The notes under the pieces are model-generated. The model worked only from the letters and a program-made list of their open reading frames with translations. It made no database searches and was not told where the DNA came from. A stretch of 64,000 nucleotides of DNA from Owenia fusiformis (taxonomy: Eukaryota; Annelida; Polychaeta; Sabellida; Oweniidae). The translations under genes and the position numbers were made by a program. This document shows, one piece after another, positions 10,058-37,731 of the stretch. Position 1 is the stretch's first letter, and each line of letters opens with the position of its first letter. The stretch lies in contig CAIIXF020000001.1 of the NCBI GenBank assembly GCA_903813345.2, forward strand, positions 12,791,915-12,855,914, read 5' to 3'.

Positions 10058-10062
10058 GTACT

Positions 10063-11012
10063 CACAGTGTCCAACCAAAACGCTCTTACATGCACGACGG
10101 AGCGTTTCATTTACGCGGAAACGCTCCGAAGCAAAATAAAATGGCGGCTAATGAAGATTCTACTATGACCGCAAGTATTGTTTTACTTGTTTCTCTTACA
10201 TATCATACGTCATGGTGACATATTATGTACCATTCGATGAACACTACCGTGAGCAAAGATCTTATTGCTTCACCTTCTGGTGGTAAACTGTTATTTGGTT
10301 GATCAAAGCTCCGTAGTGTAGATCGAACGAATCTGAAGTAGACGAATTGACCACAAATTACGAATTAAACTAGTATTTATAAGAAGACGTCAATCTTTTT
10401 GTCAAAGTAGTAGATCACAAACTTGTATATTCTCATTTCCTAAACTCCCAGTCCAAATCCATTACTTGTTCTCGAGAAATCGCTTGTCTACCTCGAAACG
10501 CTCCTAAACAGATCTAGACTACCGGAGCGTTTCCAGTTCACTGTGTTAACCAGATCGGAGCGTTTCTTAAATGTGATAATGTCATCATTTTTAAGACTGG
10601 ACTTTTGGTTACCAAATCACTATTATGATGATGTATGGTGCGTTGAAGCATTGAAATTTGACCAAAATATACATTGGTGCTCTAATCTTGGCTCAACTAA
10701 TCACATGTCTCAACAAAAGGGGTTTTGACTGGTAAAATGACAAATACGTTTTTGAATTTTGATAACTATACTGCTTCGTACAGCTCTTAATTCAAACGCC
10801 AACAGCCAGCCAAGTACAACATGAATATCACAACCATCGAATGGTATACTCGAAATAAGTAACTCATACCTCTTATTCCCATTATTGGGGAAATCGTCAG
10901 ACGGCTCATCATTCCCGCTCGCCAGTTGTCCCACCCTGGAGCGTTTCTTTGTTTAGTTTCAGTAATGAAACGCTCCGTCGTGCATGTAAGAGCGTTTGGG
11001 TTGGACACCGTG
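10063..11012. mobile_element. Non-autonomous DNA transposon, CACAGTG terminus, 5-bp duplication (Transib/RAG-like candidate)
   Basis: The 48-bp terminal inverted repeats differ at two positions and begin CACAGTGTCCAACC (left) and CACGGTGTCCAACC (right, inverted). They are flanked by the direct repeat GTACT at 10058-10062 and 11013-11017. Transib and RAG-like transposons make 5-bp duplications and have CAC-starting ends; CACAGTG is also the V(D)J heptamer. The 950-bp interior has no transposase frame. It carries seven exact copies of GGAGCGTTTC in both orientations (10099, 10118, 10495, 10524, 10557, 10938, 10967). Superfamily placement is inferred from ends and duplication only. Confidence 0.72.
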
Positions 11013-11226
11013 GTACTGGCATCTGTAAAATTTTCAAGTTGATGAACAGGTTAATGGTTTTCTTGGAATTTTGATGACAAGAATTGTTCCGGGGAATTAA
11101 TATGTAGTCTTTGAGAAACTTTGAAAACATTGTTTATGACCTAGTTTGATGACCTTGACTTTTGAGCTTGAAAATTTCACTTTTCAGACCTCAGTAGGTA
11201 TTTTTTGATTTTGATTAAACTGATCT

Positions 11227-14084: not shown

Positions 14085-17000
14085 ATGAATGTTTTAACAT
14101 TTAAATATCTATTACTCCTCATTGGACTGCTTGGAGCACATGCTCGGGTAAGTTATAAGCTCAAAGATCAGGTCTATTTAACAGACTTAATTGGTCCATT
14201 AGCTTTTTTTTAAAACCAATTGCATGCCTAATTCCATGTTCATATATACTTGTAGGGGCTAAAAGAGGGGTTTATTGACACCTGTCCTTTCGTAAAGAAA
14301 TGCAATAGGTAGATTAGTGTATAAAAACAATGTTGAATTGAAAACTTGAGATACATATTAAACAAAGAGGAATGGCACTATTATAATATAAATTATAATA
14401 GAAATCAGTTTGTCACCTGTATTGGCACAGTCTTCATGAGAAAGAATTGCTATTTATTCAATAATACTACTGTTTTTCCTGGGAAATAAAATCATATTAT
14501 CCCTCTTAAAATCATATATACTCGAAAAATCATATTGTCCCTGGAAAAAAATCATATTGTCCCTATTTTTTTCAAAAAAGTTTTTTTTTCAAAAAATCAT
14601 TTTAATATCGCCAAATCTGCCAAATTAAAACGTCCATCAAATTAAAGCAATTTACAGTACATGTGTATGATTCTGTTGTCTATTATATATAAATGTATAT
14701 ATAAATGTCTATTGTCACTCAAGTATAAGATAAATATAGGTTATTTCATGCTTGATTTTCAATATGAATTTTATTCCACGGGAAATATGACATTATACTT
14801 GAGTGACAATAGACATTTATATATACATTTATATATAATAGACAACAGAATCATGTACATGTACTGTAAATTGCTTTAATTTGATGGACGTTTTAATTTG
14901 GCAGATTTGGCGAATTGATAAAAACTGCCAAATTAGGTCTCCGCCAATTTTTTGAAAACAAAATTCCAGGGGATTTTGGTCCAGTGCATTTTACATGTGT
15001 TGCCTTGCACGATAAAACTTTGGTGAAAATATTGGTAAAATGTCAGAGGTTTAGATAAAACAATTTAATGGCAGGAGAGATAAAATTGCATTATCACTGG
15101 CGAGCTGCGAAGTGATTAATATGATTGATGAATGTCAATCCGTCAAATTGAATAGCAGCCAAAATTTGCCCAATCCCCCAAATTAAAGCAATTTATAGTG
15201 TATAATCTTATTTTTTATTTATTTAATTATATTTTTTCTGGAGTTATCCTATCAGCCAATATGATTGTGAAGTTACTTTGCCAGAATCTGGTTCATTGAC
15301 AGACACGTTAAAATTCATTAAATACACTTCACTTGCAAACAAAATACCGTGAACACTATTAGTATAGTAGGAACAAGGGGTTCCCATGCACCCATAAGGT
15401 GTGAATAAGTTACATACATTTTTGTAATCCCTAGGGTGTCTATTTAATGAATTCATTTGTTAACATTGCCAACTAATGTCCCATAGTACTTTTATGGCGG
15501 CATTCAGTTACCATGGTTACGCATCTTTAGACATCTTACCTTGGTATCTTAAATCATTTGTAGCTCTGTCATTATTTGGTCTATAGAAATGATATTGGTA
15601 CCAAATTGAACCTCGTTAAATTTTCAATAAATTTCTGATATTCAATTATGCAAATTATCTAATTTGCATAAATTATGACGTCATCAATCTATTTTTGGTT
15701 CAGAATTTCCAACTATAGCAACGTATCTATTAGAACTGAGGCCGTATGGCAAAATTTCTGAAAGGTTTTGTCCTTTATTCTATTAGAAGAAGGTATAAGC
15801 AACATAAAAGTGAAAACAGATTCAAAATTGAATCAGTATTACGAAAGTTATGTAACTTTCGAGGCAGCTATCGTGAATGTCATTATTTGACAATAATATA
15901 CATACATCTTACCTTGGAGTCTTGAATCAATGTAGCTTCGCCATTATTTGGTCTATAGAGATGATATTGGTATCTAATTAAACCTTATTAAATTTACTAT
16001 ATGGTTACAATATTCAAGTATGCAAATTAGCTAATTTGCATTAATTGTGACGTCATCAATCCATTTTTGGTTCAGAATATCCTAGTATAGCAACATATCT
16101 ATTAGAACTGAGGCCGTATGACAGAATGTGTGCATAGTTTTGTCCCTTATTTGATGAGTGGAAGATATAAGCAACATTAAAGAGACAACAAATCTTCAAA
16201 ATTGGATCAGAATTAACAAAATTATCCAGCTTTGGAGGCAGCTACTGTGAACGTCATTGTTTGACAATTATAAAAAGAATATTAAATTAACAAAAAAAGT
16301 AACAACCATAGTTGTTTCAATCTTATTGAGTAAAAATGTGCATGTATTGAACTGAACTAATAAGTATGTGGAAAGCTTACATGTATTTTGACTATCATTC
16401 ACAGGGGTCAAAACGGTTATCTCGACCCTGTATATTAAAGATCCAATTTTATAATTTACCATGCACTTTCAATGATTCATATAAATAGTATACATATAGT
16501 CTGATTTTCATCATATTCTTCATATTCTTGATTCTTAAAGTATCTGAAGTATAAAGCATGATTAGAAGTGAAGATGATTCATCATATGGTTTATGTAATA
16601 TTTCTAACATTTCAGATGCTATGGTAACATCACTTGATAATGAGGTTTTTACATTTCACGTTCTTAATGAGTTAGAAGAAAGTTATTCTCCCTTTGCTTT
16701 AGAGATAAATAGTCACATGAATTTGTTTAAAAAAATTATAACTTAATTTAACCCCCTCCTGACAGCCCCCATATTTGAAGATTTTGGTGAAACCTGGCAA
16801 AATACATTAATTATTAGGTTCCAGAAGCCCCTAGAAGCTATATGATGGCCCCCAGTGGCCCCAAGAATCTATACAGGGGCCCCAAGTGGCCCCCAGAAGG
16901 TATACGATGGCCCCCAGAAGCTATACAAGGGCCCACAGAAACTATACTGTGGTCTCCAGAAGCTATATGGTGGCCCCCAGTGGCCCTCAGAAGCTATATG

Positions 17001-20000
17001 ATGGCCCCCAGAAGCTAATTAGTGGCCCTCAGGAGCTATATGATGGCACCCAGAAGCTATACAGGGAACCCCAGTGGCCCCAAGAAGCTATACGATGGCC
17101 CCCAGAAGCTATACAGCAGCCCCCAGAAGCTACACGATGGCCCCCAGAATCTATATGATGGCCCCCAATGGCTCCCAGAAGCTATAGAGGGCCCCCAGTA
17201 GCCCCTAGAAGCTATACGGTGGCCCCCAAAGCTATATGGTGGCCCATTGGGGAACACTGTATAGCTTCTGGAGGCCATCGTATAGCTCATGGGGGCTACC
17301 GTATAGTTTCTGCGGGCCCTTGCATAGCTTCTGGGGGCCATCTTATAGCTTCTGGGAGCCACTGGGGGCCCCTGTTTAGCTTCTGGGGGCTACAGTACAG
17401 TTCCTGCAGGCCCTTGCATAGCTTCTGGGGGCCATCGTATAGCTTCTGGGAGCCCCTGTATAGCTTCTGGGGGCTACTATATAGCTTTCGGGGCCACTGA
17501 GGGCCACCATATAGCTTCTAGGGGCTACTGGGGGACCCTTTATAGCTTCTGGGAGCCATTGGGGGCCACCATATAGATTCTGGGGGCCATTGTGTAGCTT
17601 CTGGGAACCACCATGTAGCTCCTGAGGGTCACTATTTAGCTTCTGGGGGCCATCATATAGCCTATGAGGGCCACTGGGGGCCACCGTATAGCTTCTAGGG
17701 GCTACTGGGGGCCCTTCACATCTTCTGGGAGCCATTGGGGGCCATCATATAGATTCTTGGGGCCATCATGTAGCTTTTTGGGGCTCCTGTATAGCTTCTG
17801 GGGGCCATCGTTTAGCTTCTTGGGGCCACTGGGGTCCCCTGTATAGCTTCTGGGAGCCACCGTATAGCTCCTGGGGGCCACTAATTAGCTTCTGGAGGCC
17901 ATCATATAGCTTCCGAGGGCCACTGGGGGCCACCATATAGCTTCTGGAGACCATAGTATAGTTTCTGGGGGCCCTTGTATAGCTTCTGGGGGCCATAGTA
18001 TAGCCTCTGGGGGCCCAGTGTAGCTTCTGGGGGCCACCGTATAGCTTTTGGGGGCCACTGGGGGCCCCTGTATAGCTTCTGGGTGCCACCGTATAGCTCC
18101 TGGGGGCCACAGGGTTTCCTGTATAGCTTCTGGGAGCCACCGTATAGCTCCTGGGGGCCACTATTCAGCTTCTGGGGGCCAACATATAGCTTCTGGGGAG
18201 CACAGTATAGCTTCTTGGGGCTACTTGGGGCCCCTGTATAGATTCTTGGGGCCACTGGGGGCCATCATAAAGCTTCTGGGGGCTTCTGGAACCTAATAAT
18301 TAATGTATTTTGCCAGGTTTCACCAAAATCTTCAAATATGGGGGCTGTCAGGGGGGGGGGGTTAAATTAATTAAGTTATAATTTTTCAAAACAAATTCAT
18401 GCGACTATTTATCTCTAAAGCAAAGGGAGAATAACTTCCTTTTAACTCATTAAGAACGTGAAATGTAAAAACCTCATTATCAAGTGATGTTACCATAGCA
18501 TCTGAAATGTTAGAAATATTTCATAAACCATATGATGAATCATCTTCACTTCTAATCATGCTATATACTTCAGATGCTTTAAGAATCAAGAATATGAAGA
18601 ATATGATGAAAATCAGACTATATGTATACTATTTATATGAATCATTGAAAGTGCATGGTAAATTATAAGATTGGATCTTTAATATACAGGGTCGAGATAA
18701 CCGTTTTGACCCCTGTGAATGATAGTCAAAATGCATGTAACCTTTCCACATACTTATTAGTTCAGTTCAATACATGTACATTTTTACTCAATAAGATTGG
18801 AACAACGATGGTTGTTACTTTTTTGTTAATTTAATGTTCTTTTTATAATTCTCAAACAATGACGTTCACAGTAGCTGCCTCCAAAGCTGGATAATTTTGT
18901 TAATTCTGATCCAATTTTGAAGATTTGTTGTCTCTTTAATGTTGCTTATATCTTCCACTCATCAAGTAAGGGACAAAACTATGCACACATTCCTTCATAC
19001 GGCCTCAGTTCTAATAGATATGTTGCTTTACTAGGATATTCTGAACCAAAAATGGATTGATGACGTCACAATTAATGCAAATTAGCTAATTTGCATAACT
19101 TAATATTGTAACCATATAGTAAGTTTAATAAGGTTTAATCAGATACCAATATCATCTCTATAGACCAAATAATGGCGAAGCTACATTGATTCAAGACTCC
19201 AAGGTAAGATGTATGTATATTATTGTCAAATAATGACATTCACGATAGCTGCCTCGAAAGTTACATAACTTTCGTAATACTGATTCAATTTTGAATCTGT
19301 TTTCACTTTTATGTTGCTTATACCTTCTTCTAATAGAATAAAGGACAAAACCGTTCAGAAATTTTGCCATACGGCCTCAGTTCTAATAGATACGTTGCTA
19401 TAGTTGGAAATTCTGAACCAAAAATAGATTGATGACGTCATAATTTATGCAAATTAGATAATTTGCATAATTGAATATCAGAAATTTATTGGAAATTCAA
19501 CGAGGTTTAATTTGGTACCAATATCATTTCTATAGACCAAATAATGACAGAGCTACAAATGATTTAAGATACCAAGGTAAGATGTCTAAAGATGCGTAAC
19601 CATGGTAACTGAATGCCGCCATAAAAGTACTATGGGACATTAGTTGGCAATGTTAACAAATGAATTCATTAAATAGACACCCTAGGGATTACAAAAATGT
19701 ATGTAACTTATTCACACCTTATGGGTGCATGGGAACCCCTTGTTCCTACTATACTAGATCTATATCTTAAATTCTCAGTACTTGAATTAAATAACAAATT
19801 ATGCAAGTTTATAAATGTTTTTTAAAAGGCATCCATTATAAACATACAAATATCATATTACTATGACAAATATGTTTCTTGAAGGACATGATAAATCATA
19901 ATGTAAAATATTTCAAAATTGTTGAATTTTAGAGCTGTGCGATGAGCAAAATGCATTATGTGATCACTTCCTGATTTGTGATAAATTTTTCATAAATTCT

Positions 20001-34868: not shown

Positions 34869-37731
34869 TATGCTTATTATAGCTAGTGTAAATGTTGAAA
34901 TGTTTGTGCACTTTGAGATAAAAGCATTAAACAATTTTTACTTAACAAGATTAGTATTTGTAACAATAATGATATATATCAACTTCGTTATAATACTTTA
35001 CTCGAGTATGAGGCAAAAGCTGCCCAAATACGGTCACGTGTACAGTGGATAGAGGAAGGTGAACGCAACACAAAATTTTTTCTTGGTCTTGAAAAACACC
35101 AACAGAAGAATCAAACAATATATAATTTAAAACGTCCCAATGGAACTGTAGTTAGTAATCAGAGTGAAATATTACAAATGCAGGAGAAGTTCTATAAAAC
35201 CCTTTATACTTCAAAATATATACAAAAAGATAAAATCAAAAATTATTTAGATAATACCAACATTAAACGAGTATTAACAAAAGAGGAAGCTGATCTCTGT
35301 GAAGGAGAGCTCACTTATGATGAAGCAAAACATTCTATTTTTAGCATGAAGCTTAATAAATCTCCAGGTCAAGATGGATTAACTGTCGAATTCTATCAAA
35401 CGTTTTGGCCATTAATTGGTAAAATGGTAACTGATGTTTTAAATCATGGTCACAGTAAAGGACAATTAATTTTTTCTCAAAGATTAGGCATAATAAAGTT
35501 GTTACATAAGAAAAATGATAACCAAATATTAAGTAACTGGAGACCCTTAACCATGCTTAATGTAGATTACAAATTATGTGCCCACATTTTAGCTCAGAGA
35601 CTTCATAAAATATTACCACTAATTATTAATCAAGACCAACAAGGTTATATAAAAGGAAGATTTATTGGATACAATATTAGGTTAATAAGTGATGTAATTA
35701 ATTATGCTAATAAATATAGAAAAACATTAGATTCTGCTATTATTTTTGCAGATTTTTCAAAATGTTTTGACTGTTTGGAAATTGACTTCACAATAGAAGC
35801 ATTAAAGAAATTCAATTTTGGTATGAGCTTTATTAAATGGATTAAAACTTTGTATAATGGGATACAAAGTTGTGTAGCTAACAATGGTCACTTATCACCA
35901 TATTTTGATGTATCTCGGGGCATTCGGCAAGGGTGCCCCATTTCTGCTTTGATCTACCTCATTGCTGCTGAAACTATGGCAATTAATATTAGAAACAACA
36001 GTAAAATTAAAGGTATAAAAGTAAGAAACAAAGAAGTTAAAATATGTCAACTAGCCGATGACACCACTCTTTTTGTTCATGGAAAAAACTCAATTAACAC
36101 AGCTATCAAAGAAATACAACGTTTTGGAACAGTTTCTGGTTTAGAGCTTAACTTAGAAAAAACAGAAGGTATAAAACTTGGTAACTTTAAAAATGATAAT
36201 AATACTACTTTTTGTAATATTTCCTGGAAACAGGAAGTAAAATCATTAGGCGTCTACTTTGGAATAGATCAAACTAAATTGCATGATCTTAATTGGAATA
36301 GTATAGCTGACAAAATGAGAAAATCGTTGTCTTTGTGGAAAAAACGTAAGATTTCCCTTTATGGAAAAATAGTTATAATTAAAACTCTTGCATTATCTAA
36401 ACTGATGTATTTAGCAAAATGCATTGAAACTCCAAATGAAACTTTTTTGAAAGATATCACTTCAGAGCTTTATTCATTCCTTTGGGATGGAAAAAGAGAC
36501 AAAATTAAAAGATCTGTCCTAATTAATACTTTATCTAAAGGTGGACTCTCAATGCCTGACTTAAAATCTAAATTTAGGGCTTTCAAAATTAAATGGCTAT
36601 TAGATATTGAACATGGAAATAAACAAGCAAGTTGGAATATTTTAGCAAGAGAGATATTAAGTAAAACTGGACTCCCAGATACTCTGATATTTAAATCTAC
36701 ATATGGAAAACCTGAGAATATTAGTAATTTTAATGTCTTGCCTCAATTTTACCAAGATATACTCCATGCTTGGAGTATTCTTGGAGGCTCAGAATCCAAA
36801 ACTCACAACATAAGCTTTGCAGAAATTAGACAAATGGTGATATGGCACAATAAATACATAACTTTCAATAACAAATGTTTGTTTTTTGAAAATTGGATAG
36901 ATTCCAATATACTGTATGTAAATGACTTAATGCTTACTCAAAATGAAATAGTTAATAAACTTAATTGTAAAGTCAATTGGATGGCAGAATTTATAACAGT
37001 TAAACAGTCTGTGCCATCTCATTATAAAGTTAAAATATTTAGTGATGAAAGTAAATGTACACATGTAAATACAAACATAAATCTCAGGTTTTATGATAGC
37101 AAATTGAAAAATTATAGATTCTTGGATAAACATGCAAGTTCTAAAGACTTATACTCAATCTTGTTGGAAAAAATTGCAACTAAAACATATTTGGAATCAT
37201 TTTGGATTAATCTTTGTGAAATTCAAAATAGTCAACTATTGTTTCAACAGACTTGGATACTATTAAAGCAATCCAAGAATAAAAAAGTGGCCAATTTTAA
37301 ATACAAACTTTTACATTACATTTTACCATGCAAGCAATTACTTCTTCAATGGAAAATAAGTGTCAATGATAAGTGTGATATTTGTGGACAGGTAGAAGAC
37401 TATAGACATTTGTTCTTTCAATGTCATAGAGTAATTAATGTAATCAATCAACTTGAAAATTATATACTTGATCATTTTAAGATTGAATTAAGCTTGAAAA
37501 AGTATAAGACTCTTATCTTTGGCTACAAGGTACAAGAAACTAGCTATACTTACTTTAATGAGTGGTTAAATAATTTATGGTATATTATATTTGTAAACTA
37601 TTGTAATAATGTTCAAGAATTAAAATTGTATCACTTTTCGCAGATATTGTAATATTGTAAAATGATGTAAACAAAGTTATAAAACAGAAATATATACATG
37701 AAATAATAACAAAAAAAAAAAAAAAAAAAAA
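34869..37731 (+). mobile_element. 5'-truncated L1/Tx1-type LINE retrotransposon with poly(A) tail
   Basis: The sequence from about 34869 carries the C-terminal two thirds of an ORF2-like protein, a short 3' UTR and a 21-base A tract (37711-37731). The endonuclease domain and ORF1 are missing, the usual 5' truncation. I could not identify a convincing target-site duplication. The long uninterrupted frame points to recent insertion. Confidence 0.88.
34917..37652 (+). pseudogene. LINE ORF2 fragment: reverse transcriptase, endonuclease lost
   Basis: In-frame sequence is open from 34917; the ATG at 35178 is internal and gives 824 residues. Before it, RSRVQWIEEGERNTKFF is the typical pre-RT segment. 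RT motifs follow, numbered from that ATG: NKSPGQDG near 60, NWRPL near 120, FADFSKCFD at 190-198 with catalytic Asp192, GIRQGCP near 250, and LADD at 292-295 (usual FADD or YADD, both Asp kept). A C-terminal CDIC-x7-H-x4-C cluster is the zinc-finger-like motif of L1-type proteins. The enzyme would copy its own RNA at a nicked target, but without endonuclease and ORF1 it is probably not autonomous. Confidence 0.88.

What the first reader, a model, noticed from the sequence alone, without database searches (positions are those of the whole stretch)
10063..11012. Transposon whose end is the V(D)J heptamer CACAGTG, with a 5-bp target duplication
Seen: 48-bp inverted ends with two mismatches, starting CACAGTG and CACGGTG, and exact GTACT on both flanks. 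Known: Transib and RAG-like transposons have CAC-starting ends and 5-bp duplications, and CACAGTG is the recombination-signal heptamer. Inference: this is a non-autonomous passenger of a Transib/RAG-like transposase in this genome. CACTA and Chapaev elements also start with CAC but give 2-4 bp duplications.
Basis: partly seen in the sequence, partly recalled or inferred. Interest (0 to 1): 0.8.

Follow-up and report, generated by a model that had tools for sequence, protein, structure and literature searches.

The report
Non-autonomous CAC-ended, 5-bp-duplication DNA transposon
This is one small, gene-less copy of a common "cut-and-paste" jumping-DNA family whose ends resemble those used by relatives of the antibody-gene recombinase, but the enzyme that moved it was not found in this genome, so the immune-recombinase link stays unproven.

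Summary
In detail: 10063-11012 is a 950-bp element with 49-bp inverted ends (47 of 49 paired) and exact GTACT duplications. It belongs to a repeat family with 606-621 matching ends in its genome. All 27 copies checked share these boundaries; 23 have exact 5-bp duplications, 4 differ at one base. So it is a non-autonomous cut-and-paste transposon. The headline "V(D)J heptamer CACAGTG" is wrong for the family: 40 of 42 ends read CACGGTG, and CACAGTG is seen only at this one end. The Transib/RAG reading is partly supported. CAC ends and 5-bp duplications fit Transib. But RAG1, HzTransib and two recalled Transib-like queries found no Transib and no gene with these ends, and the duplications are AT-rich, whereas Transib, ProtoRAG and RAG favour GC. 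The genome's Chapaev-type elements make 4-bp duplications (4 of 4 copies), so they are unlikely partners. A second non-coding family (CACTGTG ends, 5-bp duplications) lives in the same genome. Best guess: an orphan Transib-type passenger; hAT5 or an unrecognised RAG1/CACTA-like transposase remain possible.

The parts
10058..10062 (.). left target site duplication GTACT
   Evidence: exact match to 11013-11017
10063..10111 (+). left 49-bp terminal inverted repeat, starts CACAGTG (family consensus CACGGTG; the A at position 4 was seen at this end only, 1 of 42)
10078..10107 (.). inverted repeat inside the TIR, AAACGCTC (10078-10085) / GAGCGTTT (10100-10107)
   Evidence: the same 8-mers pair within the family TIR
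10099..10107 (+). motif GGAGCGTTT, copy 1; further + copies start at 10524, 10557 and 10938
   Evidence: 7 copies on both strands in 950 bp, 500 mononucleotide shuffles mean 0.002, max 1
10119..10127 (-). motif AAACGCTCC, copy 1; further copies start at 10496 and 10968
10502..10504 (.). junction of an internal deletion of about 320-340 bp relative to the 1.3-kb form; the L002 copy has the same short form
10112..10963 (.). interior: no similarity to the nine transposase proteins compared (one Transib-like, seven Chapaev-type, one L032-type; RAG1 itself was not in this comparison)
   Evidence: the first frame of the element holds 16 stops
10964..11012 (-). right 49-bp terminal inverted repeat, starts CACGGTG on the - strand
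11013..11017 (.). right target site duplication GTACT

Best explanation
A non-autonomous cut-and-paste DNA transposon (a long MITE) of Transib-like type. A transposase supplied in trans bound the CAC..GTG ends, probably helped by the repeated GGAGCGTTT/AAACGCTCC motif, excised the element and joined it to staggered cuts 5 bp apart in AT-rich DNA; gap repair left the duplications. Shown: ends, 5-bp duplication, copy number, no coding similarity in the copies examined, AT-rich target. Inferred: transposase binding to the motif, the excision chemistry, and that the transposase is of the Transib/RAG1-core kind. The partner is either lost or absent from this assembly, or too diverged for these searches. 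That it is a non-autonomous TIR transposon I hold at about 0.97; the Transib-type assignment carries the confidence given here.
For: Fixed boundaries with 5-bp duplications in 27 of 27 copies allowing one mismatch. Termini begin CAC in 42 of 42 ends of 21 elements: CACGGTG 40, CACGGCG 1, CACAGTG 1. CAC ends with 5-bp duplications are described for Transib and RAG-like transposons (PMC7204232, passages; PMC4411706, passages). The Chapaev-type elements of the same genome give 4-bp duplications in 4 of 4 copies, so 5 bp sets this family apart from them. A second CAC-ended 5-bp family exists here (8 of 10 exact), with an uninterrupted target copy that shows the single GTTAA.
Against: No Transib or RAG1L gene found in four protein searches, nor with the RAG1 Pfam model (where 0 of 14 control genomes rang, so it says nothing). 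Duplications are 88% AT in 19 copies (95 bases), 84% in all 27 (135 bases), against 66% in flanks (1710 bases), opposite to the GC bias reported for Transib, ProtoRAG and RAG. No RSS nonamer at 12- or 23-base spacing: 3 and 1 of 9 matches to ACAAAAACC (nonamer recalled; best elsewhere 6 of 9 at spacing 4). Beyond CAC the end does not fit the protostome RAGL consensus CACTWMCAAACKTYKBB (comparison is my reading).
Confidence: 0.5

Rival explanations
1. The family is moved by a so far unrecognised lineage of the CACTA/Mirage/Chapaev/Transib group (RAG1-related transposases) that uses CAC-type ends, 5-bp staggers and AT-rich targets.
For: The group shares CA..TG termini in most cases and 2-5 bp duplications (PMC12730594, passages). 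Besides Chapaev types this genome holds a RAG1-like lineage with a 726-729 aa open frame (L032/L033) whose only Pfam match up to E 10 and only clear PDB matches are RAG1, and broken or split relatives of it at 26-38% identity. Canonical Transib is not seen.
Against: L032-type ends are CATATCGAG, not CAC, with no 5-bp duplication in the two copies with both ends printed. Ends of the broken lineage were not found. No element links either lineage to the CACGGTG ends.
Confidence: 0.25
2. A non-autonomous hAT5 element (hAT group with 5-bp duplications).
For: hAT families with 5-bp duplications exist (hAT5; PMC12730594, passages). Repeated subterminal motifs are common in hAT elements (recalled). 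A at position 2 and G at position 5 of the end fit the hAT end pattern (recalled).
Against: The recalled hAT end pattern YARNG needs a purine at position 3; 42 of 42 ends have C. 49-bp near-perfect ends starting CAC are not typical of hAT (recalled). No hAT search of the genome was made.
Confidence: 0.15
3. A Chapaev-type passenger.
For: CAC-starting ends, and Chapaev-type (DUF1280) genes with long open frames are present in this genome.
Against: The two families that could be bounded begin CACACCAT and make 4-bp duplications in 4 of 4 copies.
Confidence: 0.06
4. A chance inverted repeat or an artefact of segmental duplication.
For: None found.
Against: 606-621 ends with zero in the reversed controls. 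Duplications differ from copy to copy. The two short-form copies have unrelated flanks.
Confidence: 0.01

Closest known systems
Transib superfamily, non-autonomous members
   Same: CAC-starting inverted ends, 5-bp duplications, spread of gene-less copies.
   Different: No Transib gene found here; AT-rich rather than GC-rich targets; 49-bp TIR with an internal repeat, no RSS-like nonamer at 12/23 spacing.
RAG-like (RAGL / ProtoRAG / TransibSU) transposons
   Same: CAC termini, 5-bp duplications.
   Different: No RAG1L found; end does not follow the protostome RAGL consensus beyond CAC; no RAG2-like search was made.
Chapaev (CMC group)
   Same: CAC termini; Chapaev-type elements with DUF1280 transposase and a Cys-rich first ORF (my reading) are present in this genome.
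   Different: CACACCAT ends and 4-bp duplications, 4 of 4 copies.
hAT5
   Same: 5-bp duplications; subterminal motif repeats (recalled trait).
   Different: Third base of the end is C in 42 of 42 ends; no hAT partner was looked for.

Membership tests
Non-autonomous TIR transposon (MITE-like) | many copies with shared TIR boundaries, copy-specific duplications, no transposase | tested here: met
Transib | 5-bp target site duplication | tested here: met
   23 of 27 copies exact, 4 of 27 with one mismatch
Transib | termini beginning CAC | tested here: met
   42 of 42 ends
Transib | partner element encoding a Transib transposase in the same genome | tested here: inconclusive
   nothing found, but the tool's sensitivity could not be checked on a eukaryote known to have Transib, and introns or N runs could hide it
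Transib | GC-biased duplications (reported preference) | tested here: not met
   88% AT in 19 duplications against 66% in flanks, 84% in all 27; preference from PMC8289069 passages
RAG-like transposon (RAGL) | RAG1L gene with same ends | tested here: inconclusive
   RAG1 core query found only the L032-type lineage; RAG1 Pfam search uninformative because 0 of 14 controls rang
RAG-like transposon (RAGL) | RAG2L gene | not tested
   no RAG2 search made
RAG-like transposon (RAGL) | protostome TIR consensus CACTWMCAAACKTYKBB | tested here: not met
   family reads CACGGTGTCCAACCCAA or CACGGTGTATAACCCAA; consensus from PMC7204232; compared by eye
V(D)J recombination signal | heptamer CACAGTG with nonamer at 12 or 23 spacing | tested here: not met
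   CACAGTG in 1 of 42 ends; nonamer match 3 of 9 and 1 of 9 at those spacings
Chapaev | 4-bp duplication | tested here: not met
   5 bp here; the genome's Chapaev-type elements give 4 bp in 4 of 4 copies
hAT5 | hAT transposase in a partner with the same ends | not tested

The most novel reading that the evidence does not exclude
Two gene-less families in one genome (CACGGTG ends, about 1.3 kb, strongly AT-rich targets; CACTGTG ends, about 3 kb, targets only slightly richer in AT than their flanks) use RSS-like CAC ends and 5-bp duplications without any recognisable Transib, so a still undescribed RAG1-related transposase lineage with a target preference unlike known Transib may be moving them.
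Probability: 0.2. Interest if true: 0.6.

Novelty: new member of a known kind. Interest (0 to 1): 0.3.

Why it matters
Transib and RAG-like transposons are the accepted source of the V(D)J recombinase, so each new CAC-ended 5-bp family is a pointer to where such transposases live. Here the ends fit, but the partner is missing and the target preference does not fit, which makes the family useful mainly as bait: the 49-bp ends can be used to hunt the autonomous partner in related species.

Tried and rejected
Autonomous partner by ends: I paired, by eye, the ends in two capped listings (100 of 621; 100 of 606). Only one span exceeded 2.2 kb, L025, which is an ordinary copy split by another element; L026, L040 and L041 are 1.7-2.1 kb. 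30 ends without a listed partner, out of the 47 exact 36-mer matches, were read about 690 bp inward. All 30 begin with the family's own end DNA; in 13 of them the similarity stops early, and these 13 plus L027 share no interior with one another and have no stop-free stretch over 97 codons. Ends with other DNA behind the TIR: 0 matches, control 0; this pattern needs an exact 20-mer and would pass only about 4 in 10 unrelated interiors. TIR head with another interior: 4 matches against 12 in the control. Nine transposase proteins against 39 fetched pieces: one 31-residue match at E 0.33. Most of the 606-621 ends were never read inward, so a long copy could have been missed.

Partner by protein: RAG1 core, HzTransib stretch, Transib-like query, second Transib-like query plus HzTransib. 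The one weak hit (E 1.62) is a Chapaev-type ORF. Five loci of broken relatives of the L032 protein have no family ends within the 5.7-7.0 kb read. The RAG1 family model rang nowhere, controls included, so it says nothing. A profile of six Chapaev-type ORFs gave only two chance PDB matches; the two L044 pieces likewise gave chance matches only. Boundaries of two further elements (L034/L081, L032/L082) were not reached.

Chance, foldback and Chapaev readings were rejected as told under rivals. hAT5 came up late and could not be searched.

Full report
What is there. The window element runs from 10063 to 11012 (950 bp). Its ends are 49-bp inverted repeats pairing at 47 of 49 positions, and GTACT lies directly outside both ends, at 10058-10062 and 11013-11017. 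The window is part of a 498-Mb assembly in 525 contigs.

It is a family. A search with the element scored 40 of 631 first-look candidates and reported 156 matching pieces at 40 listed places, the window's own included. Of 20 copies fetched from these, 19 are 1246-1302 bp long and one is 1620 bp. The window copy and L002 are a shorter form lacking about 320-340 bp, at sites with unrelated flanks. A 17-base end pattern gives 304 + 317 = 621 places with 0 in the control; a 36-base pattern with up to 3 mismatches gives 305 + 301 = 606, control 0. If each element has two ends, that is roughly 300 elements.

Boundaries and duplication. Of 20 fetched copies, 19 have a duplication of exactly 5 bp and the twentieth differs at one base. 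Of 5 further CC-type copies 2 are exact and 3 differ at one base. L002 and the window copy are exact. In all, 23 of 27 are exact and 4 of 27 differ at one base. The duplications are AT-rich: 88% of 95 bases in 19 copies (the imperfect copy of that set left out), against 66% of 1710 flanking bases, with a 5-base footprint; over all 27 left 5-mers the figure is 84% of 135 bases.

The heptamer. Of 42 ends in 21 elements, 40 read CACGGTG, one CACGGCG and one CACAGTG; the last is the window's left end. So the exact RSS heptamer is seen at one end of one copy, and the family consensus is one base off. There is no nonamer at the 12 or 23 spacing. Two subfamilies differ at positions 9-10 (CC or AT). 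Mean pairwise identity of the 21 elements is 0.959; as these are among the best-scoring copies, the whole family may be older.

Other anatomy. Each end contains its own inverted repeat AAACGCTC/GAGCGTTT. GGAGCGTTT/AAACGCTCC occurs 7 times in the window element (500 shuffles: mean 0.002, maximum 1), 8 times in L008 and 5 times in L006. I infer that these are transposase binding sites; this was not tested.

The missing partner. No copy with coding DNA was found in what was examined: end pairs in the capped listings, 30 ends without a listed partner, end patterns with other interiors, and protein comparison of 39 fetched pieces. A RAG1 core query found four weak places, E 0.68 to 3.69, which belong to a different transposon (L032/L033) with CATATCGAG ends. 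Transib queries validated against HzTransib in the PDB found nothing but one Chapaev-type ORF at E 1.62. Absence is not proved: the tool warns that misses do not show absence, and no eukaryotic positive control was possible. The only hint of sensitivity is that the RAG1 query did pick up the L032 type at 25-26% identity.

Chapaev as a control. Two families of Chapaev-type elements were bounded by comparing two copies each (DUF1280 match in 6 of 6 ORFs scanned; the Chapaev name is my reading, after passages of PMC4411706). They begin CACACCAT and have 4-bp duplications in 4 of 4 copies. The method therefore tells 4 from 5 bp, and these families are not the partner. A third pair did not reach its ends.

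A second family. In L025 the 1.3-kb element is split by a 3064-bp element with CACTGTGG ends and GTTAA on both sides; the uninterrupted copy L008 has GTTAA once at that place. Its longest stop-free stretch is 81 codons. Of 10 further copies 8 have exact 5-bp duplications, one has a 6-bp match and one is imperfect. Its duplications are 78% AT (50 bases) against 70% in flanks (400 bases), a small difference. The first look reported 5199 candidates, of which 40 were scored.

Judgement. Ends and duplication length place the family nearest Transib. The GC bias of Transib, ProtoRAG and RAG is from passages of PMC8289069. Papers were read as passages only: PMC7204232, PMC8355894, PMC4411706, PMC12730594, PMC8289069, PMC10045372; all others were seen in search listings. 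Whether the family is already named in Repbase or Dfam could not be checked.

Noticed in passing
L025:445-3508 (G000:C2:14752162-14755225): Second non-coding family, about 3.06 kb, 63-bp TIR (84-90% between ends in most listed copies) starting CACTGTGG, 5-bp duplications in 8 of 10 copies plus the nested GTTAA case; 5199 first-look candidates, 40 scored. L048 holds another copy inside the first family.
   Followed up: partly
L032:1260-6625 and L033: Transposon of about 5.4 kb with a 726-729 aa open frame whose only Pfam match is RAG1 (E 0.0013, below cut-off) and best PDB matches RAG1 (E 4.5e-4); CDG, GGD..C..C and GVEKSN lie in RAG1 order (the CDG part is my reading). TIR CATATCGAG, duplication length unresolved.
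   Followed up: partly
L034-L039, L079-L081: Chapaev-type elements with open frames of up to 667 aa (DUF1280), a first ORF with a Cys-rich region like the RAG1 N-terminal part (my reading), CACACCAT ends and 4-bp duplications in the two families bounded.
   Followed up: partly
window 15360-19756: Very large foldback: 938-nt arms 98% complementary with further nested inverted arms, about 4.4 kb in all.
   Followed up: no
window 35178-37652 (+): 824-aa ORF with reverse transcriptase and zf-RVT domains, a LINE-type retroelement.
   Followed up: no
L026:796-1571: Insertion of about 0.78 kb in a copy of the family, with ATACCGTATT-like inverted ends and a 2-base overlap, mariner-like.
   Followed up: no
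L042-L046: Broken or split relatives of the L032 transposase (26-38% identity) with no ends found.
   Followed up: partly
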